NCBI GenBank assembly: GCA_015067025.1
Contig: SVNC01000001.1
Coordinates: forward strand, 62,001 to 126,000
DNA: 64,000 nucleotides
Direction: 5' to 3'
From: Oscillospiraceae bacterium
GTDB taxonomy: Bacteria > Bacillota > Clostridia > Oscillospirales > Ruminococcaceae
Under the pieces are notes generated by a model. The model saw only the letters and a program-made list of their open reading frames with translations, did not search any database and was not told where the DNA came from. Below are positions 14,927 through 39,395 of the stretch, piece by piece; positions within the stretch are counted from its first letter, which is position 1, and every line of letters begins with the position of its first letter. The position numbers and the translations under genes were made by a program.

Positions 14927-15685
14927 ATGCTTGCAAAAAGAATAATACCTTGCCTTGACGTAAGAGACGGCAAGGTGGTAAAGGGTATAAATTTCGTTGG
15001 AATAAAAGAGGTCGGCGACCCTGTAGAATGTGCGGCAGAGTACAACGATCAGGGTGCAGACGAAATATGCTTTCTTGATATAACTGCAACTCACGAGGGC
15101 AGAAAGACAATGGTGGACGTGGTACGTCGTACTGCACAGAGGGTGTTTGTTCCCCTTACAGTAGGCGGTGGAATATCCAGCGTAGATGATTTCAGAGAAC
15201 TGCTCAGAAGCGGTGCAGATAAGGTTTCTGTAAACTCTGCGGCGGTAAGAAATCCAAATCTTATAAAAGAAGCGGCTGAGATATTTGGCAGTCAGTGCGT
15301 AGTCGTTGCCATTGACGCAAAGAAAAAGGGCGATAGCTGGACTGTCGTTGTAAACGGCGGCAGAATTGATATGAATATCGATGCTATAGAATGGGCACAG
15401 AAAGCCGAAGAGCTTGGCGCAGGTGAGATACTTCTTACGTCCATGGACACAGACGGAATGAAGCAGGGCTTTGATATTGAACTGTTAAATGCCGTTTGCG
15501 ATAAGGTAAAGATACCCGTAATTGCCAGCGGTGGTTGTGGTACGTTACAGCACTTCTCCGACGTGTTTAAAGAAACTAAGGCTTCTGCGGCTTTAGCGGC
15601 TTCGCTTTTCCACTATAAGGAGCTTACAGTAAGCGAAGTAAAACAGCATCTTAAAGATAACGATATCCCCGTGAGAAATTTTTAA
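14927..15685 (+). CDS. hisF: Imidazole glycerol phosphate synthase, cyclase subunit
   Basis: Uses ammonia channelled from HisH to cyclise PRFAR into imidazole glycerol phosphate plus AICAR. Catalytic D11 lies in IPCLDVRDG, and the second Asp in [19 protein letters not shown] and [10 protein letters not shown] are the phosphate-binding loops. Length 252 aa is standard. hisI and hisE follow closely. Confidence 0.98.
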
Positions 15686-15698
15686 AGAAGGTATAAAA

Positions 15699-16025
15699 AT
15701 GGATTTAGATATTTATTTTAAAAAAGCAGAGCTTATCCCTGCCATTGTAACTGATATAGACACTGGTGCAGTACTAATGCTTGCGTACATGAGTAAGGAA
15801 AGCTTAAAGCTTACTCTTGAAACAGGCTATACCTGGTTCTGGAGCAGATCAAGAAAAGAACTGTGGAACAAGGGTGCAACCTCAGGCAATATGCAGAAGG
15901 TTATTGAAATCCACGCAGATTGCGACGACGACACTTTACTTGTAAAGGTAAAACCCGCAGGTCCTGCCTGCCATACAGGAAGCTATTCCTGCTTCTTTAA
16001 AGAAGTAATAAAAAACGAAGAATAA
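15699..16025 (+). CDS. hisI: Phosphoribosyl-AMP cyclohydrolase
   Basis: Zinc/magnesium hydrolase opening the purine ring of PR-AMP. The metal-binding residues are in ADCDDDTLL and [11 protein letters not shown]. At 108 aa it is a stand-alone cyclohydrolase; HisE is encoded separately by the next gene. Confidence 0.97.
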
Positions 16026-16037
16026 GAGGAATTTGAT

Positions 16038-16376
16038 ATGTCACTTTATGAAGAAATTTTTGCAGTATTAAAACAGAGAAAAGCTGATTTTGACAGCGGT
16101 AACGCACCGGAAAAATCCTACACCTGCTATCTTTATGAGAAAGGTGTGGATAAAATATGCAAGAAGATAGGCGAGGAAGCCTCCGAAACTATCATTGCGG
16201 CAAAGAATAATGACAACGAAGAGCTTATGAACGAAATAAACGATCTGCTTTATCACATCATGGTTCTTTGCGTAAATCAGGGACTTGACTGGTCAGACGT
16301 TGAAAAGGTCCTTGATGAAAGAAACGAAAAGATTGGAAACTTAAAACAGTTCCACACAACAGACAAGCTTTCATAA
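16038..16376 (+). CDS. hisE: Phosphoribosyl-ATP pyrophosphohydrolase
   Basis: MazG-fold enzyme removing pyrophosphate from PR-ATP, the second histidine step. The Glu/Asp metal cluster is in KKIGEEASETIIAAKN and NEINDLLYH. The 112-aa length is typical. It completes the pathway set, except for a recognisable histidinol-phosphate phosphatase, which I do not see in the window. Confidence 0.96.
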   Translation: MSLYEEIFAVLKQRKADFDSGNAPEKSYTCYLYEKGVDKICKKIGEEASETIIAAKNNDNEELMNEINDLLYHIMVLCVNQGLDWSDVEKVLDERNEKIGNLKQFHTTDKLS

Positions 16377-16392
16377 ATTACGAGGTGTAAAA

Positions 16393-17685
16393 ATGAAAAA
16401 GCAACTTAAAACCAAAATCTTAGCAGCGTTTATGAGCATTGCTATGCTTGCAGCCTTTGCAACAGGCTGTACAGACAGTAGCAACAACTCATCAGCAGAT
16501 AACAGTACAACATCAGATAACAGTTCAGTAACATCAGAAGACACAAACTCGCAAACAGGCACACCTGAAGCTATCCGTGATATAAGCTCTATGGAGCTTG
16601 TAAAGGAAATGAAGGTGGGCTGGATTCTCGGTAACACACTCGACGGCGGCGGAAAGCACCTGAAGGGTGCATCGGTTCAGTCGCTCGAAACTGCATGGGG
16701 TAATCCCGTAACCACAAAGGAAATGATAGATGCAGTTGTAGCTGCAGGCTTCAATATTATAAGAATTCCTGTAACCTGGGACTGGAGCACGGGCGAAGCG
16801 CCTGACTATAAAATAAGCGACGCCTGGATGAACAGAGTTCAGGAGGTTGTCGATTATGCTATCGACAACGACGTTTTCGTCATCCTTAATATACATCACG
16901 AGACCTGGCATTATCCCACAGAGGATAATTACGAAGCGGCAAGCGACAGACTGAAAAAGATCTGGACTCAGATAGGCAACCACTTTAAGAATTACGATGA
17001 AAAGCTCATATTTGAAGGTATGAACGAGCCTCGTGTAATTGGCACAAGCGAAGAATGGAACGGCGGCAGTCCTGCTACAAGAGAGATCGTAAACAAGCTG
17101 AATTTCGACTTTGTTGAAACTATCCGCAGTCTTGACGGCAATAACAAGCTTCGTCATCTTATGATTCCCGGTTATGCGGCATCTTCTTCAACTGCAGCAC
17201 TTAAGGATATCAAAGTTCCTGAAAATGACGATAAGATAATCGTTTCTGTTCACGCATACACACCTTATAATTTTGCATTAAGTCAGGAAGCGTCAGCAAG
17301 CAGTAAGTGGTTCGCACAGAATAAGGGTCATACAAATGAAATTGACAGAATAGCAGAGGATATAAAAACACTCTTTATAGATAAGGGTACGCCTGTTATC
17401 ATCGGTGAATTCGGTGCGGTAAACCGCAACAATGAGTTATACAGAGCTGACTGGGTAAAATACTACATTGCAAGAATGAAGCAGGTTGGCGTTCCTTGCG
17501 TATGGTGGGACAACGGTGCTTTTAACGGCGGTGGTGAGAACTTTGGCTTTTTTGACCGTAATTCACTTACTTTCAGATATCCCAAAATACTTGAGGCTAT
17601 GATGACAGCGGTAAATACCGACGTTGATCTTGAAGAAATGAGAACAGCTCCTTTACAGATATATGATAATGATAAGGCGGCTTGA
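16393..17685 (+). CDS. GH5 family glycoside hydrolase lipoprotein (cellulase-like)
   Basis: Predicted secreted, lipid-anchored endo-beta-glucanase-type enzyme. A signal peptide ends in a lipobox (FATGC, about residue 26), followed by a Ser/Thr/Asn-rich linker to about residue 56. The GH5 barrel shows GWILGNTLDG, IIRIPVTW, NIHHETWH, acid/base E212 in FEGMNEPR, VHAYTPY and nucleophile E339 in IIGEFGAVN. Both catalytic residues are intact. It begins 16 bases after hisE with a GAGGTG ribosome-binding site and no visible promoter of its own. It has no carbohydrate-binding module or dockerin. Confidence 0.92.
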   Translation: MKKQLKTKILAAFMSIAMLAAFATGCTDSSNNSSADNSTTSDNSSVTSEDTNSQTGTPEAIRDISSMELVKEMKVGWILGNTLDGGGKHLKGASVQSLETAWGNPVTTKEMIDAVVAAGFNIIRIPVTWDWSTGEAPDYKISDAWMNRVQEVVDYAIDNDVFVILNIHHETWHYPTEDNYEAASDRLKKIWTQIGNHFKNYDEKLIFEGMNEPRVIGTSEEWNGGSPATREIVNKLNFDFVETIRSLDGNNKLRHLMIPGYAASSSTAALKDIKVPENDDKIIVSVHAYTPYNFALSQEASASSKWFAQNKGHTNEIDRIAEDIKTLFIDKGTPVIIGEFGAVNRNNELYRADWVKYYIARMKQVGVPCVWWDNGAFNGGGENFGFFDRNSLTFRYPKILEAMMTAVNTDVDLEEMRTAPLQIYDNDKAA

Positions 17686-24595: not shown

Positions 24596-24780
24596 ATAAT
24601 TTACTTCGTAAATTATGAAATTTGATGCTGTCGCATCAAGTGAAATTAAATCCGTCCTACTTCCCGACAAAGTCGGATTTCGTCACGCTAGTGATTTCAT
24701 CCCACGAAAGTGGGATTTATCCCGTCCGCAAGGACGGATTTAGTTGAAAAAAGCTCATTGCTTTCGCAATGAGCTTTTTT
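24596..24780. repeat. Array of seven consecutive unrelated hairpins
   Basis: Hairpins at 24596-24616, 24622-24639, 24664-24676, 24683-24694, 24699-24716, 24722-24737 and 24747-24780. Stems are perfect but differ in sequence; loops include stable GAAA and GCAA tetraloops. Several are joined by a shared TGAAAT spacer or its complement. The last has a 15-bp stem with A and T runs and works as a terminator on either strand. Confidence 0.8.
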
Positions 24781-24781
24781 C

Positions 24782-24864
24782 TGGTACGGGTAACAGGAAT
24801 CGAACCTGCACGGTCTCCCGCCAGAACCTAAATCTGGTGCGTCTGCCAGTTCCGCCATACCCGC
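24782..24864 (-). tRNA. tRNA-Leu (anticodon TAG)
   Basis: Cloverleaf read on the minus strand. Acceptor GCGGGTA pairs with TACCCGT, anticodon stem CCAGA/TCTGG with loop TTTAGGT, short variable arm, T arm GGTTCGATTCC, CCA end encoded. Confidence 0.93.
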
Positions 24865-24900
24865 ATATTAACTTACTTTATAACACCTGTAAAAATAAAA

Positions 24901-24927
24901 CTACGCTGAATAAAATATTCAGCGTAG
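24901..24927 (-). terminator. Terminator between tRNA-Ser and tRNA-Leu
   Basis: Perfect 12-bp stem (24901-24912 with 24916-24927). On the minus strand it follows tRNA-Ser by two bases and is followed by a T-rich run. tRNA-Leu would therefore need read-through or its own promoter in 24865-24900, where only a weak TATAAA-like box is visible. Confidence 0.75.
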
Positions 24928-24929
24928 AA

Positions 24930-25021
24930 TGGCGGAAAGAGAGGGATTCGAACCCTCGAACGGGTATTAGCCGTTACACGATTTCCAATCGTGCGCCTTA
25001 GACCAGCTCAGCCATCTTTCC
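24930..25021 (-). tRNA. tRNA-Ser (anticodon GGA)
   Basis: Minus strand. Acceptor GGAAAGA/TCTTTCC, discriminator G, encoded CCA, anticodon stem CACGA/TCGTG with loop TTGGAAA, and the long variable arm typical of serine tRNAs. Confidence 0.94.
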
Positions 25022-25171: not shown

Positions 25172-25876
25172 ATGAAAATTTCGGTATGCGATGACGAAAA
25201 GAGCTTTGCAGAGGGACTTATATCAGAAATATCAGCCTTTTTCCTTGAAAGAAATATCGAATGTGAATTCCGTTATTTCTCTGAGGGAGAAGAATTTTTA
25301 TCGTCAATAAAAGAAAATAATGATTACGAACTTATCTTTATGGATATAAACCTTATCAGTGCCGATGGGGTAAATATCGTATCGAAGCTTCGTGATATGG
25401 AAATAACCACTCCCGTTATATTTGTTACGAGCCTTGAGAATAGAGCCATAGACGGTTATGACGTAGATGCCTTCGGCTTTGTGGTAAAAAAGAGCTATAA
25501 GGAAAAGCTACCCCGTGTTCTCACAAAGCTTTACGATAAGCTTTATAATAAAAAAACAATGGCAATACACGAAAAGGACAGCACCGAGATTATGAACACC
25601 GAGGATATTTTATATATCGAATCGGACAAGCGTGCAAGTGTAGTCCATACTTTAACAGGAATTTTAAACGATATCCGCCCTATAGGACAGATAAGCACAG
25701 AGCTTTCGGCAGATGATTTTGTTGAGGTGTTTAAATCTGTCTACGTAAATATAGCAAAAATAAAAAGAATAAATAACGATACGGTAATTCTTGAAAATGA
25801 AGATTCCTTGCCGCTCAGCCGACGCAACAGAAAGAACGTTATGTATGCAGTTATGAAGAAGGTGGGCGGACGATGA
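25172..25876 (+). CDS. LytTR-family response regulator (AgrA-like)
   Basis: Receiver domain (about 1-120; acidic pair in VCDDEK, phospho-acceptor D58 in IFMDINL, VTS and the KKS lysine region) followed by a LytTR DNA-binding domain (about 130-234; DILYIESDKRASVVHT, FVEVFKSVYVNIAKI, LPLSRRNRKNVM). LytTR proteins bind pairs of short direct repeats one face of the helix apart. Such a pair lies at 27777-27809 before the lipoprotein genes. ATG 25172 is chosen for its GAGGTGG; upstream in-frame codons are unlikely. Its stop overlaps the kinase start (ATGA). Confidence 0.92.
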   Translation: MKISVCDDEKSFAEGLISEISAFFLERNIECEFRYFSEGEEFLSSIKENNDYELIFMDINLISADGVNIVSKLRDMEITTPVIFVTSLENRAIDGYDVDAFGFVVKKSYKEKLPRVLTKLYDKLYNKKTMAIHEKDSTEIMNTEDILYIESDKRASVVHTLTGILNDIRPIGQISTELSADDFVEVFKSVYVNIAKIKRINNDTVILENEDSLPLSRRNRKNVMYAVMKKVGGR

Positions 25877-27771
25877 AGAGTTATAAAAAAAGCTTGCTTT
25901 TCTTTATGCTTGCGATCTTATTTATAGTGAGCATAAACAGTGCTATCTTCTACTATACCGCCTGCATAGGCAGCACTGTAAAAAGCACGGATTGTTACGG
26001 TCAGACCTATGAAACGGATAAGGAGACTGTATCACAGATAATAAGCATTACCGAAAAATATGGTGATAATTATGTTGTTATGGCACAGGAGCTTCATGAA
26101 GAATGGTCTGTATTGTCTGAGCTGCTGTATAACCTCAGAGAACTTCAGAAGTACGGCTCTACCCTTGAAGAGGTTAAGAAAACCGAAAATCTCAGCACAG
26201 AAAAAAAGGAAATGATTAATAATCTTATTTCCTACTATGGAAATGAGGATGTCAATATAGCGTCAGCAATAGAGAATATAAGTAAAAAGACGACTATATT
26301 CAATGCGGCGGTAACTAATACGGATAAATATACCGACTATGACAGCTTTATAAAATCCGTATCTGATAACGCAGACTTTATGCTGGAAATTTCAATCTAT
26401 AAAAATGACCTTTTCGCCGTAAACAATATAGAAAAAACAAAATCTGACTATAATGCTTTGAGCGGACTCTCTCCGAAATATGCTGACGACAGTGGGCTGA
26501 GTTCGTTTTTAAATTACAGAATAACGGATATCATTGCCATTTTGTCGGTGCTTTTGCTACTTCCGTTTTTTGCGGGAATGATAAAGAGTGCAGACTCCAC
26601 CCTCACTCTTGACAGAAGATATGCGGTGATATTTCCGCTTATCCTTACAGGTGCTGTTATAGTAATGCAGGGGGCAAATCTTCTTTTTTCCGTGCTTTTT
26701 ATCGGAAAGATAGATATTTCTCTCCCGGTTCAGTCCTATCCTATACTGTTTTATTCGGGAGAAAAAATAAGTACCGGTTTACTAATTCTGCACTTTTTCC
26801 TGTCAAAGATAGTCGGTACAGTGATATTCCTGCTTTTAACTTCCTCCCTCGTTTGTATCGTTAAGGGCAGTAAGGGAGCGAAAAAGCTTGTCGGCAGTCT
26901 TGCAATAATACTTTTTGTGGTATTTGAAGCAGTTACGGTTATCTTTATGGGTGACGGCAATATTTTAAAGGAACTTAATATATTTTCCTGCTTTATGCCT
27001 GAACGTTATTTTATAAGATACATAAACGTTGATATCCTGGGTAATGCAGTATCAAGAACGGGCGTGTTTTGGGGCTTTGCTCTTGCGGTACTTCTGATAT
27101 CACTGATAGTCTTTATAAGAAGTCTTGGCAACTTTATGAAAATAGCAAGAGCAGACGCCGAGCAAAGCTATTATGACGAAATAAACAGAAAGTACGAGCA
27201 ATCCCGTGCTATCCGTCACGATATCAATAACCATCTGACTGTAATCAGCATGCTTATTGAAAAAGGCGACAGCAAGGGAGCGTTAAAGTACATAAATGAG
27301 GTCTTTGATGAAACAAGCCTTGCAATGCAGCCTCTTAAGACAGGCTCCAGCGTGCTTGACGCCTTACTGCATAAAAAGACTGAGCAAGCGTCAAAAAGCA
27401 ATATAACCTTGTCTTATGAAGTAAATGCATCGCTGAACGTGGGTATATCCGATTACGATATGTGCGTTATCTTCGGTAACATTCTTGATAACGCTATTGA
27501 AGCGGCAAAGAAAGCCGATGAAGATAAAAGAGATATAACGCTTACAGTCGGCACACAGCACGATATGCTCTATATATCCTGTCATAATTTCCATAGCAAT
27601 GATATAAAGGAGCAGGGTGACAGACTGATGACCACAAAATCAGATACCTCAATGCACGGAATAGGACTTTCCCGCATAAAGACCGTAGCGGCAAAATATG
27701 GCGGTACGGTGAAGGTAAGCTATGATGAAGCAAACTTTATGATTGAAGTATTAATACACAAAATTAAATAA
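25873..27771 (+). CDS. AgrC-like histidine kinase with a permease-like sensor region
   Basis: 632 aa, longer than usual for AgrC-type kinases. One membrane segment (about 7-29), a large outside loop (30-215), then about five more membrane segments to about residue 415. The cytoplasmic kinase has H449 in RHDINNHL (HPK10 type), N box FGNILDNAIEAAKKA and HGIGLSRIKTVAAKYGG. Residues 156-199 match the loop of the ABC permease at 35861 (residues 52-95) at about half of positions, including FAV-NI-KT--DY--LSG. The following membrane region aligns too. The sensor therefore appears to be an ABC-2 half-permease fused to a kinase. Confidence 0.9.
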   Translation: MKSYKKSLLFFMLAILFIVSINSAIFYYTACIGSTVKSTDCYGQTYETDKETVSQIISITEKYGDNYVVMAQELHEEWSVLSELLYNLRELQKYGSTLEEVKKTENLSTEKKEMINNLISYYGNEDVNIASAIENISKKTTIFNAAVTNTDKYTDYDSFIKSVSDNADFMLEISIYKNDLFAVNNIEKTKSDYNALSGLSPKYADDSGLSSFLNYRITDIIAILSVLLLLPFFAGMIKSADSTLTLDRRYAVIFPLILTGAVIVMQGANLLFSVLFIGKIDISLPVQSYPILFYSGEKISTGLLILHFFLSKIVGTVIFLLLTSSLVCIVKGSKGAKKLVGSLAIILFVVFEAVTVIFMGDGNILKELNIFSCFMPERYFIRYINVDILGNAVSRTGVFWGFALAVLLISLIVFIRSLGNFMKIARADAEQSYYDEINRKYEQSRAIRHDINNHLTVISMLIEKGDSKGALKYINEVFDETSLAMQPLKTGSSVLDALLHKKTEQASKSNITLSYEVNASLNVGISDYDMCVIFGNILDNAIEAAKKADEDKRDITLTVGTQHDMLYISCHNFHSNDIKEQGDRLMTTKSDTSMHGIGLSRIKTVAAKYGGTVKVSYDEANFMIEVLIHKIK

Positions 27772-27776
27772 AATTG

Positions 27777-27809
27777 ACCGCTTTTGCAGGAAAAACGACC
27801 GCTTGTGCA
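27777..27809 (+). promoter_or_regulatory. Putative LytTR binding site: two direct repeats at 21-bp pitch
   Basis: ACCGCTTTTGCA at 27777-27788 and ACCGCTTGTGCA at 27798-27809. AgrA-type sites are two ~9-bp repeats separated by about 12 bp, the same 21-bp pitch. The second copy ends 7 bp before the -35 region. A third, inverted copy (TGCAAAAGCGGT, 27806-27817) pairs with the first and could form a terminator-like hairpin behind the kinase gene. Confidence 0.65.
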
Positions 27810-27816
27810 AAAGCGG

Positions 27817-27845
27817 TTTACTTTTTTTGTTTCAGTTGATATAAT
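27817..27845 (+). promoter_or_regulatory. Promoter of the lipoprotein and ABC operon
   Basis: TATAAT at 27840-27845 with a weak -35 (TTTACT, 27817-27822) at 17 bp, as expected of an activator-dependent promoter. The start codon of the first lipoprotein is 31 bases downstream of the -10 box. Confidence 0.65.
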
Positions 27846-27876: not shown

Positions 27877-29262
27877 ATGTTTAAAAGAATAATATCAGCA
27901 ATACTTATCTGTGCGATGGCGGTGTCCTTTACCGCTTGTTCGGAAAATAATACGTCGGGTGGAAATATAATTTCACTCACAGGAGAAGAAAATATACCGA
28001 CAAACAACCCAAACGTGAATTACGGCGGCACACCTATAATGAAAACAGAAAATGGATATTATTTTTTTTCATCCGCTGGCTCTCTTATGTTTTATGACAA
28101 TCAGGCTGATCAGAATATTTATTTATGTAATAAACCTGAATGCCTTCACGATGGCAACGACTTTTGCGTATCAACAAAAGATCGGCTCAGCAGAAGAGCC
28201 GGAATGTTATATAACGATCACATATACATTGTAAACGTGGAAGAGGAAGAGGAAAAAAAGACCTATAAGCTTTTGCAGGCTGACTTATACGGTAGCGAGC
28301 TTTCAGAGATATGCACTTTCTTCTCTGCGGTTGAAGGTGATATGAACATAAGCACCGCACATTCCATAATCCATAAGGGTAAAATGTTTGTAACGGTGCA
28401 GCTGCATAAAAATCCTTTGTCGCAAAATACCGAGCTTAATGAAGGAATTGGTATGAAGATATTTATGATAGACCTGAAAAACGGCAGCTATCAAGAAATA
28501 CAGATAGACAACAGCGGCGAAAACGAAGGGCAATATGTCTATGACGGCTTTTTGTCGGCAGACAAGGATAATATATACTACCTTACCTCATCTAAAGAAA
28601 ATATGTTCAGACCGAGGTTACAGTGTTATAATATCACAACAGGTGAAACGAAAGTTGCATATTCCTTCGAAAGGGCTGTAGCAAGCTTTACAGTAAATAA
28701 TGACAAGCTTTATTACACATCCACTTGCTATAAAGACAGCAGTTCATCGGATTATCTTTCAAAATTTAAATTCAGCCTTTATTCAGTTGATCTTAAAACA
28801 GGAGAAGAGAAAACCTTTATAGAAGAAAAAGAATCTGAAAAGCCGTTAAGTCCGTATGTGTTCTTTGGAAACTATGTCGAGGTCACTACAGACAGAAACT
28901 ATCTTTATGTCTGCACTGCGTCTTCTACAAGCTACTCAGCAGATTTATACCCGATAGGATTTTATATTTATGATTTTAATGGAAAAGAGCTTGCCGCCTT
29001 TAATGGCAACGGTCAGTTTGACTGGGAAAATAAGCATAAGGGATATATATTTAACGTTCTTGACGGTGTGGCGTATCTCAGAGTGTTTGAAGAGTTTCAG
29101 CAATTTGAAACCTATTCATGCTCTGTAGAAGATATTTTAAACGGTAAAGAAAAATGGACAAGAATTTTTGATTATACCGTACCGACTCCCCCAGAAAGCG
29201 AAGAAGACGAAGAAAACAGCGTTAATAGCGAAGGAGAAAATGTAATTGAAACAGAAAGCTAA
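27877..29262 (+). CDS. Lipoprotein 1 of a five-gene paralogous array
   Basis: 461 aa. Signal peptide with lipobox (FTACS, cysteine about residue 21), then repeated short beta segments ending in aromatic pairs (NGYYFF, DNIYYLTSS, NDKLYYTS, RNYLYVCT) that suggest a beta-propeller, possibly DUF5050-like. It carries the array motif LCNKPECLHDGNDFC (C-x4-C-x7-C with invariant HDG), but lacks the PQCEPAN segment of copies 2-5. It is the most divergent copy, with an acidic C-terminal tail. AAGGAG near its 3' end is the ribosome-binding site of copy 2. Function unknown. Confidence 0.87.
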   Translation: MFKRIISAILICAMAVSFTACSENNTSGGNIISLTGEENIPTNNPNVNYGGTPIMKTENGYYFFSSAGSLMFYDNQADQNIYLCNKPECLHDGNDFCVSTKDRLSRRAGMLYNDHIYIVNVEEEEEKKTYKLLQADLYGSELSEICTFFSAVEGDMNISTAHSIIHKGKMFVTVQLHKNPLSQNTELNEGIGMKIFMIDLKNGSYQEIQIDNSGENEGQYVYDGFLSADKDNIYYLTSSKENMFRPRLQCYNITTGETKVAYSFERAVASFTVNNDKLYYTSTCYKDSSSSDYLSKFKFSLYSVDLKTGEEKTFIEEKESEKPLSPYVFFGNYVEVTTDRNYLYVCTASSTSYSADLYPIGFYIYDFNGKELAAFNGNGQFDWENKHKGYIFNVLDGVAYLRVFEEFQQFETYSCSVEDILNGKEKWTRIFDYTVPTPPESEEDEENSVNSEGENVIETES

Positions 29263-30730
29263 AAGATTATCAGCGTTTATTTTAACAGTGGCAATGATAT
29301 TATCATTAACCGCCTGCTCAGAAAACACTACCTCTGTAACAAGTGGTACAAGTATTAATGAGAGCGGTAACGAAAGTGTGGATAATTCAGAAATCACATC
29401 AGAAACTTCTTCAGATGTAAATGAAAACATCACAGTTCAGAATTCGCCGAATAAGGTGGATGACACCCTGCCTCAGTGCGAGCCTGCGAATATGAGGATC
29501 GTATTGGGTAATAGAACTCAAAGCATAATGAAGGGCAACGAGGGATATTATTACAGCACCGTATATGAGTCTATGAACGGTTGGAGAACCCTTAATGCAT
29601 TACACTATTATGATAATAAAACAGAAAAGAGCCTGATACTTTGCAGTAAGCCCCAATGCACGCATGATGGTAACGAGTTCTGTACTGCTACCGCAACCGA
29701 TAAGATGAGTGTATCTTTCGATTCGGCGTATTATTGTTACGGTAACTTTATATATAAGGTTTTCAGCACTCGACCGACCGCTGATAATTCTACTCAGGAA
29801 TTCAAGCTTTACAGATACGATCTTATGGGCAATGAACGGTCGGAAATAGCTACGCTTGCTACCCCTGTAGTGACGACCGAAGATATGCCTCATACTTACA
29901 TAACCCAGTCTGTTTTCCATTACGGTAAAATGTTTTATGTAATACACGGTGATGTCGGTATGAAGGCAGATATTTATATGCTTGATCTTGAAAGCGGAGA
30001 ATCAAAGAGGATAATGACGCCCACCACTGAAGATGGGGCAAAAAGAATTAGCGACGCTTTTGGCTTTATTACCGCCGACGGAGATTGGCTGTATTACCCG
30101 ATAAGATACGGCAAATATAACAGCAACGGGCAACAGACAGATGCCAATATGTCATATGATAAAACCTTTTTATACAGATTCAATATAAAGACAGGTGAAA
30201 CGGAAACAGTATCAGCTATGCCGGATATCTATTCTTCTTATACTGTTAATGACGGTATTGTATATTATACTGTTGTTGACAGAAAGAATAACACCTTCAG
30301 CCTTTATTCCTATGACATTACGGCAGATAAAACGGCAACCCTTGCGGAAAATATTCAGCAGAACTATCTGGATGGAAAATATATTGTAAGCAACAATCCG
30401 GTAACGGTATATACGGACAGACAGTATCTTTATATCAGTACCTGCGGTGATACCCAGCACTATAGAGAGGATCTGACCGATCGCGAAAGGGATTTCTATA
30501 TATACTCCTTTGATGGAAAACAGCTTTTACACGGTCTTAAAGGGTTACCGACAGACCGAGAAGAATGGAGTTTTGTTTTTCACGCACTGAATGGTGAGAT
30601 ATATCTGAACTTTAACGCTTGTCCTAAAGAGGGTGAAGAGGATGTATTATCGGGCGTGTACATGATAAAGACAGAAGACCTGATAAACGGCGGTACGGAG
30701 TGGAAAAAGCTCTATAAAGCAATAAACTAA
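29246..30730 (+). CDS. Lipoprotein 2 of the array
   Basis: 494 aa, TTG start overlapping copy 1 by 17 bases and placed 9 bases after AAGGAG. Lipobox LTACS. Mature part has DDTLPQCEPAN, then KGNEGYYYS, LCSKPQCTHDGNEFC and propeller-like repeats (FTV/YTVNDGIVYYTVVDRKN, TDRQYLYIST). The C-terminal KTEDLINGGTEWKKLYKAIN is nearly the same as in copy 4, and the DNA there is almost identical too. Function unknown; its genomic neighbours are an exporter and a two-component system. Confidence 0.87.
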   Translation: MKQKAKRLSAFILTVAMILSLTACSENTTSVTSGTSINESGNESVDNSEITSETSSDVNENITVQNSPNKVDDTLPQCEPANMRIVLGNRTQSIMKGNEGYYYSTVYESMNGWRTLNALHYYDNKTEKSLILCSKPQCTHDGNEFCTATATDKMSVSFDSAYYCYGNFIYKVFSTRPTADNSTQEFKLYRYDLMGNERSEIATLATPVVTTEDMPHTYITQSVFHYGKMFYVIHGDVGMKADIYMLDLESGESKRIMTPTTEDGAKRISDAFGFITADGDWLYYPIRYGKYNSNGQQTDANMSYDKTFLYRFNIKTGETETVSAMPDIYSSYTVNDGIVYYTVVDRKNNTFSLYSYDITADKTATLAENIQQNYLDGKYIVSNNPVTVYTDRQYLYISTCGDTQHYREDLTDRERDFYIYSFDGKQLLHGLKGLPTDREEWSFVFHALNGEIYLNFNACPKEGEEDVLSGVYMIKTEDLINGGTEWKKLYKAIN

Positions 30731-30768
30731 GGAGAGATAAACAAAATGAAAATGGAAAAAGTATTAAG
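30723..30768 (+). repeat. Junction repeat, copy 1
   Basis: 46-bp sequence running from the stop region of one lipoprotein through the shared ribosome-binding site (AAGGAGAGATAAAC) into the next signal-peptide codons. Copies at 32078-32123 and 33515-33560 match with one difference. It marks recent tandem duplication. Confidence 0.85.
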
Positions 30769-32059
30769 CGTAGTTTTAGCAGTAGCAATAACATTAACTT
30801 CAACCGCCTGTGCGGGCAGTAGCACAATTGGATATGATGATACTATGCCGCAGTGCGACCCTGCAAATATAACGCATCGGACGATATTAAGAAATGAATA
30901 CGCAACAATGAAAGGCACAGATGGGTATTATTATACTGAATCGCCAACAGGTAAGCATAAGCAGACCGTATTTTATTACGATATAAACACTAAAGAATCT
31001 ATTCCGCTTTGTGCAAAGCCTCAGTGCGTGCATGACGGAGGTGATTTTTGTGTTGCTACCGGTGGAGAATTCATGGTATATACTCTTTTTTATAATAATT
31101 ACATTTACAAGCTGTGTTATGAAAATGCCGACGCAGAGATGTATTCCTATAAGCTGTTAAGAGGTGATATGCAAGGAAATGAATTATCGGTGGTATCAGA
31201 TATATTCACGTCGCCTGTCGGACTTCAGATAGATATATCAAACGTATTCTGCCATTATGGTATGATGTTTTTTGCCGCAAAGAAATATTATGAAAATAAG
31301 CCGACAAATCATATATACTCAGTAAATCTCAATTCGGGAGAGGTAAAGGAAATAGAAATACCAAATGCAGAAAAATATGAGCGTTATCCTTATATGACGG
31401 CTGATAAAGATTATCTCTATATCGCAACTGAGGATGAAGTGATGGCTCCAAATCAGTCAGGGGTCAAGATGGACGCTGATACTGTAATGCACCGTTATAA
31501 TTTAAAGACGGGTGAGATCGAAACCATTCCCGAAATGCCGAAAATATATTCTTCCTTTACAGTTGATAATGGTATCATTTATTATACTACAGTAAACAGA
31601 AGCGACAACACCTTCAGCCTTATTTCCTATGATACAGAGAAAAAGGAAACAAAGACCCTTGTAGAAAACAGACAGATGGTATATATGGATAGTAAATTCA
31701 TTTCGGGAAATGGTGCAAAGGTCGTTACTGACAGAAAGTATCTTTATATCACTATGCCTTGCGGTAGTGGTTTTGCCGAGGTGAAGGACAAGAGAGGTAT
31801 GGAATTATACATATATGATATGGACGGAAAGCAACTGTATGAAGGAGTGCTAAGCACAAAGGAATCAAAAGATAGCGAAACGTATGCTTTTTCTGCTATT
31901 GATGGAGAAGTATACCTTTTATGCAGATTTATTGAGAATGTAGGAACTAACGGATTTAAAATAGATGAAGCGTCAGGGCTTTATACCATAAAAACTGAGG
32001 AGCTTGCAAAAGGCACTACAGACTGGCAAAAGCTCTTTCAGTTAAAGGAAATGGATTGA
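30746..32059 (+). CDS. Lipoprotein 3 of the array
   Basis: 437 aa, the shortest copy. Lipobox STACA at about residue 22, almost no linker, then DDTMPQCDPAN, KGTDGYYYT, LCAKPQCVHDGGDFC and the same propeller-like blade pattern (FTVDNGIIYYTTVNRSD, TDRKYLYIT). The C-terminus (KTEELAKGTTDWQKLF) is a divergent form of the shared ending. Same start context as copies 4 and 5. Confidence 0.87.
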   Translation: MKMEKVLSVVLAVAITLTSTACAGSSTIGYDDTMPQCDPANITHRTILRNEYATMKGTDGYYYTESPTGKHKQTVFYYDINTKESIPLCAKPQCVHDGGDFCVATGGEFMVYTLFYNNYIYKLCYENADAEMYSYKLLRGDMQGNELSVVSDIFTSPVGLQIDISNVFCHYGMMFFAAKKYYENKPTNHIYSVNLNSGEVKEIEIPNAEKYERYPYMTADKDYLYIATEDEVMAPNQSGVKMDADTVMHRYNLKTGEIETIPEMPKIYSSFTVDNGIIYYTTVNRSDNTFSLISYDTEKKETKTLVENRQMVYMDSKFISGNGAKVVTDRKYLYITMPCGSGFAEVKDKRGMELYIYDMDGKQLYEGVLSTKESKDSETYAFSAIDGEVYLLCRFIENVGTNGFKIDEASGLYTIKTEELAKGTTDWQKLFQLKEMD

Positions 32060-32077
32060 TAAGATTCACTAAAGTGG

Positions 32078-32123
32078 TAAACTAAGGAGAGATAAACAAA
32101 ATGAAAATGAAAAAAGTATTAAG
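32078..32123 (+). repeat. Junction repeat, copy 2
   Basis: Second copy of the 46-bp lipoprotein junction sequence (see 30723). Identity with the first copy continues about 14 bases further into the signal-peptide codons. Confidence 0.85.
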
Positions 32124-33522
32124 CGTAGTTTTAGCAATATTTACAGCCCTTGCTGTTACTGCTTGCTCGGGAGAAAGCACGTCGGCAAGTTCTGTAGGCG
32201 GCAACTTAACAAGCGAAAATAGTAGCGCTATAGAAAATACAGGTAATAAGGTGGACGACACCTTACCCCAGTGCGAGCCTGCAAATCTGCCGTCTTATGT
32301 TTTTGACGCCCGAAACGTTATGAAAGGAAAAGAGGGTTATTATTATACCTCTACGTTAAGCTCGGGCGATAAATTCAGCAATGCTCTGTATTATTATGAT
32401 CTGGCAACGGGTAAGTCTATACCTCTTTGCAGTAAGCCTCAGTGTATACACGACGGAAATGATTTCTGTACTGCGACAGGTGGATTTTTCTTTATAAACG
32501 GAAACGGCAATGCAGACGTTCTTTATAACGGGTATATCTACCGACTCGGCAATATTGCCGAAGAGCCTGATAAATATGATCTTGCCCTTTTTAAAGCCGA
32601 TTTACAAGGTAACGAATTATCAAAGGTGACAGATATACTTTCTGTCTCTATAGGAGAAGATATGTCAGAGCCTGAATTATGGAGTAAAGTATTCCATTAC
32701 GGTAAAATGATCATAACCGTGCAATTTCACGATGATGGCACAGGATTTTCAAACCGATTGTACATCGTGGATATTTCAACAGGTGAAAAGAAAGAGATAA
32801 ATGTACCTGAGCATAAAAAGGGTACAAGGGTAGAATATGAAACAGGTATATCCCTTGTATGTGACGGCGATTGGCTTTACTATACCGCAAGATACGTGGC
32901 ATATAAAAGTCAGGTTCAGTCAGAGGCGAATATGTCCTATAACAGGACCGTAATGTACAGATATAACCTGAAAACAGGAGAAACGACCGAAGTAGAAGAA
33001 ATGCCCGATATCTATTCTTCCTTTACGGTAAATGACGGCATTATCTATTATACGGTAGCAGACCGCAAGAGTAACACGTTTTCTCTTTATTCTTTAGATA
33101 CAAATACAGGAAAGGTCACAACATTAGCGGAAAAGGTACAGCAGACTTATGTTGATGGAAAGTACGTTTCTCATAATAACAAGGTTACAGTTGTTACCGA
33201 TAGAAAATATCTTTATATCTGCACAAGAGGACTTACAGGCTATTATAGCGAGAGTAACGTAAACAAAGAAAAGCAAGACGATATAGATTTTTATATCTAC
33301 AGTCTTGACGGCAAGCAGCTTTTACACGGACTGCCGGGAAAAAGTATAGATGTTGCATACTGGAGCTATAGCTTTGCTGCAGTTGACGGTGAGGTATATC
33401 TGAGATTTTCTGACTATGGACAAGGAGGCGGTGAAAGCTTATCGGGTATGTACACGATAAAAACCGAAGACCTGATAAACGGCGGTACTGAGTGGACAAA
33501 GCTCTATAAAGCAATAAACTAA
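32101..33522 (+). CDS. Lipoprotein 4 of the array
   Basis: 473 aa. Lipobox VTACS, Ser-rich linker, DDTLPQCEPAN, KGKEGYYYT, LCSKPQCIHDGNDFC, blade repeats (FTVNDGIIYYTVADRKS, TDRKYLYICT) and an ending nearly the same as copy 2. The near-identical 3' ends of copies 2 and 4 with their shared downstream repeat suggest that a two-gene unit was duplicated or converted. Confidence 0.87.
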   Translation: MKMKKVLSVVLAIFTALAVTACSGESTSASSVGGNLTSENSSAIENTGNKVDDTLPQCEPANLPSYVFDARNVMKGKEGYYYTSTLSSGDKFSNALYYYDLATGKSIPLCSKPQCIHDGNDFCTATGGFFFINGNGNADVLYNGYIYRLGNIAEEPDKYDLALFKADLQGNELSKVTDILSVSIGEDMSEPELWSKVFHYGKMIITVQFHDDGTGFSNRLYIVDISTGEKKEINVPEHKKGTRVEYETGISLVCDGDWLYYTARYVAYKSQVQSEANMSYNRTVMYRYNLKTGETTEVEEMPDIYSSFTVNDGIIYYTVADRKSNTFSLYSLDTNTGKVTTLAEKVQQTYVDGKYVSHNNKVTVVTDRKYLYICTRGLTGYYSESNVNKEKQDDIDFYIYSLDGKQLLHGLPGKSIDVAYWSYSFAAVDGEVYLRFSDYGQGGGESLSGMYTIKTEDLINGGTEWTKLYKAIN

Positions 33523-33560
33523 GGAGAGATAAACAAAATGAAAATGAAAAAAGTATTAAG
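33515..33560 (+). repeat. Junction repeat, copy 3
   Basis: Third copy of the 46-bp lipoprotein junction sequence. It diverges right after position 33560, within the signal-peptide codons of copy 5. Confidence 0.85.
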
Positions 33561-34998
33561 TATAATCTTAACAGCGACAATACTGCTGACCACTGCTTGC
33601 AGTGATAACAACACATCTTCCGTAAACTCACAGAACAGTACCATCAGTAATTCCTCGGGCGGCGTTACCGACAACACCACAAGCAGTATGGTAGTTGAAA
33701 ATACACCGAATAAGGTTGACGACACCCTGCCTCAGTGCGAGCCTGCGAATATAGGCAATGAGGCAGGTACAAATGTATATAATAGAATAATGAAGGGTAC
33801 GGACGGTTATTATTACAGCCAGCATCCGTGGGAATACAGAGAGAACGCCACAGAAGAAATGAAGGTTTACTATTATGATGAAATGCCTCTTTATTATTAT
33901 GATACTGAAACCGGGAAGAGCATAATACTTTGCAGTAAGCCTCAGTGTCTGCACGATGGCAATGAATTCTGTGCAGCAACAAGCAGTAAAGGTCAGCTAT
34001 ATTACAACTGCCTTTATAATGGATATATTTATAAGATAAATTCGAAGCGTACTGAGGTAGAAGATACCCTTGTTTTACAATTGTTAAGGGCAGATCTTCA
34101 GGGTAATGAATTGTCGCTTGTTACCGATATTGCTCAGTTTATAGATCGGTATCCCCCTGAACTACACAATGTGGTTGTTCATTGCGGTAAGATGTTTATT
34201 GCAATGACTGCCTATGTTGCCGAGGACAGCGGGACGAAGCATCTTTATGTTATAGATCTTGAGAGTGGAGAAGTTAAGGAGATAAATGTCCCTGATGCAC
34301 AAAAATACGAAACCTACGCCTATATGACTGCTGACGGCGATTATCTCTATTATGCTACAGAAGATATAAAATATGACAGTATCAATAAATATATGATTGA
34401 TACTCTTAAAACTGTAACACACCGCTATAACATTAAGACGGGCGAAACCGAAATACTATCTGCTATGCCTGAGGTCTATTCTTCCTTTACTGTAAATAAC
34501 GGAATAGTTTACTATACTGTAGTTGACAGAAAGAACGATACCTTCTGCCTTTATTCCTACGATACCGTAAAAGATGAAAAGAAAACCTTTGTAGAAGATA
34601 AACATCTGAAATATACATCCGGGAAATATCTGTCCGGTCAGAACAGCTTATCGGTTTTTACAGACAGAAAGTATCTTTATATCATTACGTCAGGAGGAGC
34701 AAACAGATATAATGAAGAGGTCGGAATTTATAGCGAGTTCTATATATATGATTTCGACGGCAAGATGCTTTACGAGGGTGTTCCCGGAATTGATCCGGAC
34801 AAAGAATGGTGGGAATATGTGTTTTCTGCAATAGACGGAAATGTATATTTTTATTATAATATTTCTGATAACTCAGATGCTCTTTACTTTGATGAGATAA
34901 CGGGGCTTTACACTATAAAAACCGAAGACCTTATTAATGGTAAAAGCGATTGGACAAGACTATATAAAACCTCAAGCCATAGTGGAGGTATGAACTGA
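33538..34998 (+). CDS. Lipoprotein 5 of the array
   Basis: 486 aa. Lipobox TTACS, long Ser/Asn/Thr linker, DDTLPQCEPAN, KGTDGYYYS, a duplicated YYYD segment, LCSKPQCLHDGNEFC, blades (FTVNNGIVYYTVVDRKN, TDRKYLYII). Its last codons contain GGAGGT, the ribosome-binding site of the ABC ATPase gene, whose ATG overlaps its stop by one base. This places the lipoprotein array and the transporter in the same transcript. Confidence 0.87.
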   Translation: MKMKKVLSIILTATILLTTACSDNNTSSVNSQNSTISNSSGGVTDNTTSSMVVENTPNKVDDTLPQCEPANIGNEAGTNVYNRIMKGTDGYYYSQHPWEYRENATEEMKVYYYDEMPLYYYDTETGKSIILCSKPQCLHDGNEFCAATSSKGQLYYNCLYNGYIYKINSKRTEVEDTLVLQLLRADLQGNELSLVTDIAQFIDRYPPELHNVVVHCGKMFIAMTAYVAEDSGTKHLYVIDLESGEVKEINVPDAQKYETYAYMTADGDYLYYATEDIKYDSINKYMIDTLKTVTHRYNIKTGETEILSAMPEVYSSFTVNNGIVYYTVVDRKNDTFCLYSYDTVKDEKKTFVEDKHLKYTSGKYLSGQNSLSVFTDRKYLYIITSGGANRYNEEVGIYSEFYIYDFDGKMLYEGVPGIDPDKEWWEYVFSAIDGNVYFYYNISDNSDALYFDEITGLYTIKTEDLINGKSDWTRLYKTSSHSGGMN

Positions 34999-35864
34999 TG
35001 CTCGAAATTAAAAATCTTACAAAAAAATACGGCGATTTTGCCGCATTATCTGATTTCAGCTACAGCTTCGGTAACGGTGTTTACGGTCTGCTCGGTGCTA
35101 ACGGAGCGGGTAAATCCACATTTCTTAATCTTATCACAGACAATATAAAGCGAACCGAAGGTGAGGTGCTTTATAACGGTACGGATATTTTAAAGCTTGG
35201 CGGAAAGTATCGCAGAAAGGTAGGCTACACACCTCAGCTTCAGGGTATGTACGAGGATTTTTCCGCAAGACAGTTTTTACGTTATATCGGTGCTTTAAAG
35301 GGTATGAAGCATAAGGAGTGCAAAAAGCAGACCGAAGAATTTTTAGAAATAGTAGGTCTTAAAAAGGTAGCAGGCAAAAAGCTGGGCGAATTTTCAGGCG
35401 GTATGAGACAAAGAGTACTGCTTGCGGCGGCAATGCTTGATAACCCTGAAATAATGATTTTAGACGAGCCAACGGCAGGCCTTGACCCGGAAGAAAGAAT
35501 AAGACTCAGAAACTACATATCCGAAATTTCAAGAAACCGCACGGTACTGCTTGCGACCCACGTTGTAAGCGATATCGAGTCTATTGCGGAAAGTGTTATT
35601 GTGCTGAGCCACGGAAAGATAAAGATCTCAGGCAGCCCTTCAGAGCTTAATAATTCCATCAGAGGTAAAGCGTTCTTTTTTGAAGGAAGCTATGAAGAGG
35701 TCATGGAAAAGAAAAAGCAGTTCCCTAAAGGTGAAATTTCCCTTTCAGGCGACAGCTATAAAATAAGAGTGCTGTGTGATGTTGAGCCTGACGAATTCCG
35801 TCCCTCCGACCAGCCGATAAACTTAGAGGACGTGTACCTTTATTATGCGGAGGGCAGAAGATGA
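34998..35864 (+). CDS. ABC transporter ATP-binding protein
   Basis: 288-aa ATPase of the ABC-2 exporter class. Walker A GANGAGKST (33-41), Q loop TPQL, signature FSGGMRQRV, Walker B IMILDEPTAGLD, H loop ATHVVSD; all intact. The last ~70 residues form the usual C-terminal extension of ABC-2 partner ATPases. Start overlaps lipoprotein 5 and the stop overlaps the permease start (ATGA), so the three are translationally linked. Confidence 0.93.
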   Translation: MLEIKNLTKKYGDFAALSDFSYSFGNGVYGLLGANGAGKSTFLNLITDNIKRTEGEVLYNGTDILKLGGKYRRKVGYTPQLQGMYEDFSARQFLRYIGALKGMKHKECKKQTEEFLEIVGLKKVAGKKLGEFSGGMRQRVLLAAAMLDNPEIMILDEPTAGLDPEERIRLRNYISEISRNRTVLLATHVVSDIESIAESVIVLSHGKIKISGSPSELNNSIRGKAFFFEGSYEEVMEKKKQFPKGEISLSGDSYKIRVLCDVEPDEFRPSDQPINLEDVYLYYAEGRR

Positions 35865-37852
35865 AAGAACTGCTGAGAACCGCATTGTCAAAAAAGATGC
35901 TGTTGCTGACGTTGCTTATGGTGTTTATAAACTGCGTTTTCTTCTCCTATGAGTGTGATACGGAAAAGCAGATAACCCTTACAGGCGATGAACTTAATAC
36001 TTATCTTGTAAGCTACCCTGATTATTTACAGTCAGTGTTTGATAACGCTGAAAATATGGGGACTATCTCTTTACTGCAGGGCAAGGATTCCTTTGCGGTA
36101 AAGAATATAGATAAGACTGTAGCTGATTACAGTAAGCTGTCAGGTAAAGTGCAATTTGGTGAAAACAGAGCGATAGTAGCCTTTTCAAACTATATGACAG
36201 GCGACTTTATGATGATTGCAATAATCATCCTTATCGCAATACGCTTTTCTGAGGAAAGGCGTAAGGGTGTTACAGGGATAGTAAAGACTACCATCAAAGG
36301 CAGAAAAGTACTTGCACTTCAGCGTATAGCAATTATAGCAGGCAGTGCAGTAGTAATAGCATTTCTATTTACTGTAACGGAAATTTTAACAGGTACTGTT
36401 ATGCTTGGCGATATGGAGCTTTCAAGAAGCATACAGTCAGTACCCGAATTTAAAATGTGCTCATTGCCGATAAATATATACGGATATCTTACGATATCTA
36501 CAGTTATGAAGGCGATGACTGTAATGACGATAGGCGTATTTATCTACCTTTTTACATATATTCTGAGCATTACTCCCGCTTCGCTCATAGCGGTGGTGAT
36601 ATTCGGAGTAGAATATATCCTCCACGCTTTTATAATTTCAACCGACCGCTTTAATTTCTTTAAATTTGCAAACATCTTTACAGGTCTTAAAAACGACGTG
36701 TTCTTCAAGAATTATTGCAACCTGAATATTTTCGGTATGCCTTTAGGCTTTATGGAAGCCTGCATAATAATTATAGCTTTTCTTACAGTGCTTTGCTCTG
36801 TGCTTTGCGTGACTCTCACGTCAGGCAATGCAGGATTTTCAATAAAGGGCTTTGCGTTGTTATCAGGCTTCAAAGAAAAAGTTGCGGCAAAATTACCCAC
36901 ATTACCCCTTTTCTTATGGGAAGCGAAAAAGATACTTATAAATCAGAAGGGTATAGTTATAGTAATAGCCGCCGCCTTTCTTGCGATAAGCTCAGTTACC
37001 CAGTATAGCTATTACAGCTATACCGACTACAGCAGGACAAAGATGTATCAGAAATACAAGGGTCCTGTAAACGAGAAGATGATAGAACGCATTGAAAAAG
37101 ATGTTGCAAGCCTTGAGCTTGGTATTGCAAACCTTGAAGAGCTTCTTGCAAAAACAGATCCCGAAAACGAGGAGGAGCTTGACAGACTGGGTCAGCAGAT
37201 AGGAAACCTGACGTCACAGCTTACTCTTACCAACGAATTTTTAGAGCTTGGCAAGGATCGTTTTGATTACTATAAAAAGACGGGAATACCCGTTCATCTT
37301 ATAGATAACAAGCCTTATAAGCTGCTTCTTATCTCAGATACGGCGACTATAAACAAAAACAGTCTTTATATCCTTATTGCACTTATAATCTGTTTTTCGG
37401 GAGTTATCGCTCACGAACGGCAATGCAATATGTACGACATTCAGCGGTCACAGAGAAGAGGCAGGAAAATTCTTATCCTCTCAAAGCTGATACTTGTGTT
37501 TATTATATCGGTACTGCTTTCCGCTTCGGTAAATATAGCACATCTTATAAACTTTACCGACACGGTAGAGCTTACAAATTTAGACGTGCCTTGCCAGAGC
37601 CTTACCTTCCTTGACGGAATACCCTGGCTTAAAGTAAATATTTTAGAGTATCTTATTATAACCTATACTTTAAGAATACTTGCCGCCTTTGCTGTCGGAC
37701 TGCTTATAACCCTTATCAGCAGATTTAGCAAAAGCTCCTCTATGGCAATGGGCGTATCTGCGGGCGTCATACTTATTCCGACTATCCTAAAGGGTGCAGG
37801 TGTAACCTTTATGATAAGCTTTGCAGATTTTGTGTCGCTTGTATTAAAATAA
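35861..37852 (+). CDS. ABC-2 type permease, two half-modules in one chain
   Basis: 663 aa. Each half has a membrane segment, an outside loop and a bundle of membrane segments. Half 1 has loop residues 25-110 and bundle to about 325; half 2 has a coiled-coil-like Glu/Leu-rich loop (about 390-480) and bundle to 660. After the loop each half has a similar cytoplasmic motif (EERRKGVTGIVKTTIKGRK; HERQCNMYDIQRSQRRGRK), indicating internal duplication. Half 1, residues 52-95, is clearly homologous to the sensor loop of the kinase at 25873. Substrate unknown; LanFEG- or bacitracin-type peptide export is a reasonable class guess only. Confidence 0.88.
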   Translation: MKELLRTALSKKMLLLTLLMVFINCVFFSYECDTEKQITLTGDELNTYLVSYPDYLQSVFDNAENMGTISLLQGKDSFAVKNIDKTVADYSKLSGKVQFGENRAIVAFSNYMTGDFMMIAIIILIAIRFSEERRKGVTGIVKTTIKGRKVLALQRIAIIAGSAVVIAFLFTVTEILTGTVMLGDMELSRSIQSVPEFKMCSLPINIYGYLTISTVMKAMTVMTIGVFIYLFTYILSITPASLIAVVIFGVEYILHAFIISTDRFNFFKFANIFTGLKNDVFFKNYCNLNIFGMPLGFMEACIIIIAFLTVLCSVLCVTLTSGNAGFSIKGFALLSGFKEKVAAKLPTLPLFLWEAKKILINQKGIVIVIAAAFLAISSVTQYSYYSYTDYSRTKMYQKYKGPVNEKMIERIEKDVASLELGIANLEELLAKTDPENEEELDRLGQQIGNLTSQLTLTNEFLELGKDRFDYYKKTGIPVHLIDNKPYKLLLISDTATINKNSLYILIALIICFSGVIAHERQCNMYDIQRSQRRGRKILILSKLILVFIISVLLSASVNIAHLINFTDTVELTNLDVPCQSLTFLDGIPWLKVNILEYLIITYTLRILAAFAVGLLITLISRFSKSSSMAMGVSAGVILIPTILKGAGVTFMISFADFVSLVLK

Positions 37853-38855: not shown

Positions 38856-39305
38856 ATGTTTAAAAATTTACATATTCCAAGCAAATTCATTTTAATTATT
38901 TTAACACTCGTCTCCGCGGCCTTTATTATCGTCGGAATTGTCGGCAGCGTTTCTACTGACAATTTTACAGGCAAAGCGGAAAAGACTTACGCCAAAGTGA
39001 CTGATATTGATTCACAAAGAGATATAATCGCTACAAGCAAAAGGCATAAGACAAAGTATGTTGTATACGTTGATTTTATGGTGAATGGCGTGACTTACAG
39101 CCGTGTAAAGCTTGGCACGTATAATTCGCCAATGGGACTTGGAGAACATATTGAGATATATTACGATCCTGATGATCCCAATCGTATATCAGACGGTAAA
39201 AAGTCGAGCAATTACGTTTCTATTTGCACCGGTGTTATTATGTTTATAGTTGCGATTTTTGTATTTATAAAGAAACGTAAAGAGGAAACGGAAGATCTGG
39301 AGTAG
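38856..39305 (+). CDS. DUF3592-type membrane protein
   Basis: 149 aa: membrane segment (about 13-33), extracytoplasmic DUF3592 domain (about 40-105; KTYAKVTDID, VVYVDFMVNGVTYS, IEIYYDPDDPNRI), second membrane segment (117-136) and a charged tail. Function of DUF3592 is not known. It is transcribed from its own promoter and followed by its own terminator, upstream of four relatives. Confidence 0.82.
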   Translation: MFKNLHIPSKFILIILTLVSAAFIIVGIVGSVSTDNFTGKAEKTYAKVTDIDSQRDIIATSKRHKTKYVVYVDFMVNGVTYSRVKLGTYNSPMGLGEHIEIYYDPDDPNRISDGKKSSNYVSICTGVIMFIVAIFVFIKKRKEETEDLE

Positions 39306-39312
39306 TTTGTTT

Positions 39313-39343
39313 AGCAAGGTGATAACTTCACCTTGCTTTTTTT
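39313..39343 (+). terminator. Terminator after the first DUF3592 gene
   Basis: Perfect 10-bp stem (39313-39322 with 39328-39337) and a run of seven or more T. Its falling arm again supplies a -35 box (39333). Confidence 0.9.
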
Positions 39344-39361: not shown

Positions 39362-39395
39362 AATACCAATAAATGACTTCTGGGGGTAACTTTAT

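What the first reader, a model, noticed from the sequence alone, without database searches (positions are those of the whole stretch)
25873..27771. Histidine kinase whose sensor region is homologous to the permease of the neighbouring ABC exporter
Seen: kinase residues 156-199 and permease residues 52-95 (gene at 35861) align with one gap, and about half the positions are the same by my count. Shared pieces include SV-DNA--M--IS, FAV-NI-KT--DY and LSG, and the next membrane segments align in order (NY--D, then a Q-S-P loop, then NIF). Known: AgrC-type kinases usually have a compact 6-TM sensor without such a loop. Inference: the sensor is a captured ABC-2 half-permease, so kinase and exporter may recognise the same ligand by the same fold.
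Basis: partly seen in the sequence, partly recalled or inferred. Interest (0 to 1): 0.85.

Follow-up and report, generated by a model that had tools for sequence, protein, structure and literature searches.

The report
Kinase sensor made from exporter half
In some gut bacteria a signalling protein appears to have borrowed half of a membrane pump for its sensing part, and a conserved DNA switch suggests that it turns on the very gene set that encodes the related pump.

Summary

Twelve such kinases form one clade and come with a LytTR regulator, 1-8 lipoproteins, an ATPase and a permease. All 12 shortened or lost the cytoplasmic loop conserved in permeases but kept the extracytoplasmic signature. 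Behind each kinase gene lies a 21-bp-period direct repeat and promoter; in the genus the repeat occurs without mismatch in exactly the 9 of 71 genomes with the kinase.

Best reading: an ATP-uncoupled half-permease turned receptor that switches on its own lipoprotein-exporter operon. That it reads the exporter's ligand is untested, and a pair-specific similarity test was negative.

The parts
25172..25876 (+). LytTR-type response regulator (234 aa): receiver domain (Asp at about 58 by my count) and LytTR DNA-binding domain
   Evidence: Pfam Response_reg 4.4e-14 and LytTR 6.8e-13
25873..27771 (+). Sensor histidine kinase: residues about 12-412 homologous to an ABC-2/type V half-permease, residues about 425-632 GHKL kinase core
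25873..27147 (+). Half-permease-like sensor, 425 aa: TM1, a helical extracytoplasmic region of about 180 aa, TM2-TM6
   Evidence: AlphaFold2 model pLDDT 82.1, pTM 0.78; fold matches
27776..27809 (+). Direct repeat GACCGCTTNTGCA, period 21 bp, probable binding site of the LytTR regulator
27817..27845 (+). Promoter-like TTTACT-17-TATAAT with TG before the -10
   Evidence: one found; 0.9 expected in shuffles, so the match alone is no evidence
27877..29262 (+). Predicted lipoprotein 1, motif LCNKPECLHDGNDFC
29246..30730 (+). Predicted lipoprotein 2, paralogue (start codon uncertain)
30746..32059 (+). Predicted lipoprotein 3, paralogue
32101..33522 (+). Predicted lipoprotein 4, paralogue
33538..34998 (+). 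Predicted lipoprotein 5, paralogue
34998..35864 (+). ABC exporter ATPase
   Evidence: Pfam ABC_tran 4.1e-29
35861..37852 (+). ABC-2/type V exporter permease, two homologous halves in one chain; the N-half is the homologue of the kinase sensor

Best explanation
The kinase is a receptor made from an ABC type V (ABC-2) half-permease joined after TM6 to a GHKL kinase core. As a kinase dimer it would hold two half-permeases and so could rebuild a pseudo-exporter membrane domain that no longer takes ATPase drive (inferred). It probably reads an extracytoplasmic ligand, either the exporter's substrate or the lipoproteins that work with it, through the conserved extracytoplasmic segments (inferred). 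A change at TM6 would pass down the following helix to the kinase core (inferred). The LytTR regulator then binds the 21-bp-period direct repeat behind the kinase gene and activates the lipoprotein-ATPase-permease operon (site and linkage shown, binding and activation inferred). The result is a sense-and-export module whose sensor and exporter are relatives. Shown from sequence: homology, predicted fold, one clade, linkage, shortening of the coupling loop, conservation of the site.
Confidence: 0.62

Rival explanations
1. Partner sensing, Bce-like: the half-permease region of the kinase docks on the exporter or its lipoproteins (perhaps as a dummy half-permease) and reports on their state or flux rather than binding a ligand itself.
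For: Kinase-permease identity is concentrated in extracytoplasmic segments (0.29-0.33 against 0.12-0.20 in membrane segments). Linkage to lipoproteins and exporter. BceAB-BceS is a precedent for an ABC transporter that contacts a kinase (named in the introduction of PMC11109136).
Against: The conserved cytoplasmic loop is shortened in all 12 kinases, so a working mixed transporter is unlikely. No pair-specific similarity. Interaction was not tested.
Confidence: 0.3
2. The half-permease region is only a membrane anchor and dimerisation scaffold; the signal is read by the extracytoplasmic helical insert (about residues 35-150).
For: The insert is about 100 aa longer than in the permease of the same operon.
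Against: Among the 12 kinases residues 47-155 hold no invariant column, whereas Y156, N185, T189, D192, D219, G278, Q287-S288, K312, Y383, N385 and G390 are kept in 11 or 12 of 12 kinases and are the commonest residues in permeases.
Confidence: 0.07
3. Chance or membrane-composition similarity limited to a short loop.
For: Mean kinase-permease identity over the aligned core is only about 0.22.
Confidence: 0.01

Closest known systems
S-component-fold sensor kinases (5TMR cluster, e.g. BtsS, YpdA, KinB; PMC11109136: introduction and passages read)
   Same: Membrane domain of a histidine kinase shares the fold of a transporter membrane subunit (ABC type III, ECF)
   Different: Different transporter class (type V exporter here); here the link is visible in sequence too, and a related transporter is encoded in the same operon
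CbrA / SLC5-STAC kinases (PMC13022988: passages; PMC7096432: search listing only)
   Same: Transporter domain joined to a histidine kinase
   Different: SLC5 symporter with STAC and PAS linkers, and by the title of PMC7096432 it has transport activity; here an ABC half-permease with its cytoplasmic loop shortened, followed directly by the kinase core
BceAB-BceRS modules (recalled; BceAB-S also named in PMC11109136)
   Same: Two-component system with an adjacent ABC transporter
   Different: BceS is recalled to have two TM helices and no sensor of its own; here the kinase carries a half-permease
AgrC-type and other ordinary GHKL kinases
   Same: Kinase core and LytTR-type partner
   Different: Sensor unrelated in profile comparison; 598-632 aa against 417-457 aa for the complete ordinary ones annotated
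ABC type V exporters such as NosDFY, PmtCD, ABCG
   Same: Predicted fold of the sensor and of the neighbouring permease
   Different: Cytoplasmic loop shortened; a kinase core follows TM6
LytTR Regulatory Systems (PMC6193735, passages read)
   Same: Direct repeats mostly 12 bp apart and 10 bp before the -35; some linked to ABC transporter genes
   Different: Those use a membrane inhibitor protein, not a histidine kinase

Membership tests
GHKL (HATPase_c_5) histidine kinase | GHKL ATPase domain with N and G boxes and an H box | tested here: met
   Pfam PF14501 6.5e-26; HDIxNH, FGNIxDNA and HGxG segments shared by the three kinases aligned; the box names are recalled
AgrC-type kinase | Sensor related to those of other GHKL kinases | tested here: not met
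   hhalign probability 0.2 against sensors of 10 ordinary GHKL kinases; AgrC itself was not compared
ABC type V (ABC-2) half-permease | Sequence homology to a permease half | tested here: met
ABC type V (ABC-2) half-permease | Type V membrane fold | tested here: met
ABC type V exporter, functional | Cytoplasmic loop between TM2 and TM3 that couples to the ATPase (role recalled) | tested here: not met
   0 of 12 kinases have the Glu or Gly at those columns; span shortened in 12 of 12
Transceptor (transporter membrane fold with receptor role) | Receptor function | not testable with these tools
   Needs assays; sequence is consistent with it
SLC5-STAC kinases | SLC5 and STAC domains | tested here: not met
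   No such Pfam hit at E up to 1
5TMR / S-component-fold kinases | PF07694 membrane domain | tested here: not met
   No such Pfam hit at E up to 1; by fold not tested separately
Bce-type module | Kinase with two TM helices and no sensor of its own (recalled) | tested here: not met
   The model has six long membrane-type helices and a large extracytoplasmic part

The most novel reading that the evidence does not exclude
A second class of prokaryotic receptors built on a transporter membrane fold: an ABC type V half-permease, cut off from ATP drive, that homodimerises as a pseudo-exporter, binds the same extracytoplasmic cargo or lipoprotein as the true exporter of its operon, and switches that operon on through one dedicated operator per genome.
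Probability: 0.4. Interest if true: 0.88.

Novelty: new variant of a known kind. Interest (0 to 1): 0.77.

Why it matters
[quoted passage not shown] Here the change can be read from sequence, with a member of the likely source family in the same operon, so the steps from exporter to receptor (shortening of the cytoplasmic loop, retention of the outer face, fusion after TM6) can be tested directly. It also gives a handle on what a widespread lipoprotein-exporter family does: find what the kinase senses.

Tried and rejected
Chance similarity: rejected. Reverse origin (permease from kinase): unlikely. Among 93 distinct sensor-homologous ORFs (E<=1e-5) in the loci fetched by then, 12 carry GHKL, all in the one kinase group, and 81 do not; the permease also holds two homologous halves.

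Kinases of this kind elsewhere: the order search (394 genomes) and the class search (391 genomes, E<=1e-6), both samples and both including the own genome, gave no other hit read as a kinase; rows without a locus were not all read. Seven places with odd frame lengths or partial matches were fetched; no GHKL match to the window's kinase core was found there. The scan that gave L086-L096 used two peptide patterns from the kinase core and so finds close relatives only. The other 12 of the 13 GHKL hits in the own genome were not read one by one (one lies in a 636-aa frame, L151); the sensor profile finds only the kinase and the permease there.

Pair-specific similarity of kinase and own permease: none overall (p=0.87; non-redundant set 0.93). 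Of eight segments TM2 (p=0.014) and the TM5-TM6 loop (p=0.026) were nominally positive, not convincing for eight tests. Sister relation of kinase clade and cognate permeases: in the best tree but unsupported (57/45). Sequence search against PDB: no hit below E 0.13 for either profile. Pfam and NCBIfam: no credible family for sensor or permease. N-terminal Glu: 74 of 75 permeases by alignment column, but only 63 of 75 have a Glu in residues 3-12 of the ORF as cut, since starts are uncertain.

No listed title or abstract start named a kinase with an ABC-2 permease sensor. Listings were capped (15 of 320, 12 of 45, 8 of 23 and 10 of 26) and the library lacks most subscription papers, so this is no proof of absence in print. 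A peptide gene was looked for only by gene order: from regulator to permease no gap exceeds 41 bp except the 105 bp with the direct repeat.

Rows dropped: duplicates (L001-L003, L017, L019-L021, L031, L063-L068) and hits with domain E above 1e-15 or spans under 230 were left out of the tree; the 75 permeases are those kept. One search used 40 of 87 rows, picked by me. The tree is the quick one, the careful search not having finished.

Full report
What is there. The window carries, on the + strand, a LytTR response regulator (25172-25876), the kinase (25873-27771), five paralogous predicted lipoproteins (27877-34998), an ABC ATPase (34998-35864) and a 663-aa ABC permease (35861-37852). Pfam recognises the kinase core (HATPase_c_5, 6.5e-26), the receiver, LytTR and ABC ATPase domains, but gives nothing credible for the kinase's first 420 residues or for the permease; NCBIfam likewise.

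The observation. The sensor alone, searched in 60 genomes, hits 14, with kinases in three (the own one and two others) and permeases in the rest.

Extent of the homology. Twelve kinases (window and L086-L096, the latter from one pattern-based scan of named genomes) give profile A3. Against the permease N-halves of eight of these operons: probability 99.8, E=5.9e-30, 247 columns. Against ten longer permease N-halves from other loci, chosen for matches that reach far towards the N-terminus: probability 100, E=1.9e-40, 375 columns, kinase profile positions 12-406, that is TM1, the extracytoplasmic region and TM2-TM6. Against the C-halves: probability 83.6, E=8e-6; the two permease halves match each other, E=2e-11. 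Against the sensors of ten of the fifteen ordinary GHKL kinase loci fetched: probability 0.2. These E-values are for single comparisons.

Distribution and origin. Kinases of this kind occur in 9 of 71 genomes of the genus (E 8.6e-204 to 2.7e-134; next hit 4.7e-28, a permease; three of the nine built the profile) and in three further records (L093, L095, L096). Record titles name uncultured Ruminiclostridium, Oscillospiraceae and Clostridia, several from deer or goat gut. In samples of 394 genomes of the order and 391 of the class the only kinase seen was the window's own; the other hits that were read are permeases. Regulator, kinase, lipoproteins, ATPase and permease lie on one contig in 9 of 12 cases (in two of these an end gene is cut by the contig); in the other three the contig ends inside the operon and the remaining genes were found on another contig of the same genome, matched by coordinates. 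Those nine operons hold 1 to 8 lipoproteins. All 12 kinases are one clade in the quick tree of 87 rows (SH-aLRT 99), and the 9 kinases of the careful 40-row tree are one clade (100/99); the cognate permeases are one clade too (99; 100/98), with compatible branching inside; the sister relation of the two clades is unsupported (57/45). One fusion event, then joint descent, is the simplest reading. The kinase keeps a long extracytoplasmic region like that of permeases elsewhere, while the permease of the same operon has a short one, so the source may be an older or different family member.

What was kept and what was lost. In a common alignment (12 kinases, 75 permeases) Y156, N185, D192, L196, D219, G278, Q287, S288, K312, Y383, N385 and G390 (window kinase numbering) are in 12 of 12 kinases and are also the commonest residue in permeases; Q-S is in 75 of 75 permeases. 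On the cytoplasmic side, the Glu of the TM2-TM3 loop (69 of 75 permeases), the Gly of the GR pair (73 of 75) and the N-terminal Glu (74 of 75 by column; less certain, as starts vary) are in 0 of 12 kinases at those columns, and the span from D219 to G278 is 49-59 residues in kinases against 67-70 in permeases. The alignment inside the loop is uncertain for the kinases; the shortening is not. That this loop contacts the ATPase in ABC-2 permeases is recalled, not tested.

The switch. Behind the kinase stop codon lies GACCGCTTTTGCA-N8-GACCGCTTGTGCA (27776-27809), then TTTACT-17-TATAAT with TG before the -10 (27817-27845). With 9-bp cores ACCGCTTNT, my choice, the repeats are 12 bp apart and end 10 bp before the -35, the commonest layout of LRS operon promoters in PMC6193735 (passages). 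The pair recurs behind all 12 kinase genes with period 21 and zero or one mismatch per repeat; in 11 it starts within 15 bp of the stop codon or overlaps it, in G430 (L067) it lies 278 bp further on (the G432 copy, suppressed as a duplicate, is listed). In 71 genomes of the genus, searched with up to three mismatches, it is found with none in exactly the nine that carry the kinase, once each; one further hit has three mismatches (G014), and the reversed control pattern gives two hits. The system therefore looks like a closed circuit with one target. The second repeat is also a terminator-like hairpin with a T run, which may end the regulator-kinase transcript.

Mechanism. Shown: homology, predicted fold, linkage, one clade, shortening of the loop, conserved site. 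Inferred: dimer as pseudo-exporter, ligand or lipoprotein binding on the outer face, signal through TM6 into the kinase core, activation of the lipoprotein-exporter operon. Against a simple shared-ligand claim: kinases are no more similar to their own operon's permease than to others (0.213 against 0.218, p=0.87). In favour of an outer-face partner: kinase-permease identity is 0.29-0.33 in the three extracytoplasmic segments and 0.12-0.20 in the five membrane segments.

Comparison. Transporter-derived sensors are a known kind: CbrA (SLC5; PMC13022988, passages; PMC7096432, listing) and S-component-fold kinases (PMC11109136, introduction and passages). An ABC type V half-permease as kinase sensor was not named in the listings of nine literature searches, several of them capped, in a library that lacks most subscription papers. 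I file it as a new variant of a known kind.

Noticed in passing
27877-34998; also L088, L089, L090, L092, L093, L095, L096, L140: One to eight tandem paralogous predicted lipoproteins per operon, with a three-Cys motif LC.[KR]P.C.HDG..xC in 15 of 15 sequences checked. Pfam gives marginal propeller-type hits for 3 of 7 and none for 4. Function unknown.
   Followed up: partly
L156:2856-4526, L157:2123-3778, L158:2317-3975, L161:1652-3361: In other genera a half-permease ORF runs on into a lipobox-like stretch and propeller-like sequence (by eye; the lipoprotein profile reports only L158, with domain E 0.04), as if lipoprotein and permease were fused.
   Followed up: partly
27797-27818: The second direct repeat doubles as a terminator-like hairpin followed by a T run.
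   Followed up: partly
24744-25001: The small ORF here overlaps tRNA-Leu and tRNA-Ser genes on the other strand and is probably spurious.
   Followed up: yes
38856-41727: Five consecutive small membrane-protein-like ORFs that look paralogous by eye, behind a gene at 37984 that looks like a sigma factor.
   Followed up: no
L030:7500-10465 and 15283-17306: A relative of the ATPase-permease pair with a 437-aa GHKL kinase and a regulator about 5 kb away.
   Followed up: no
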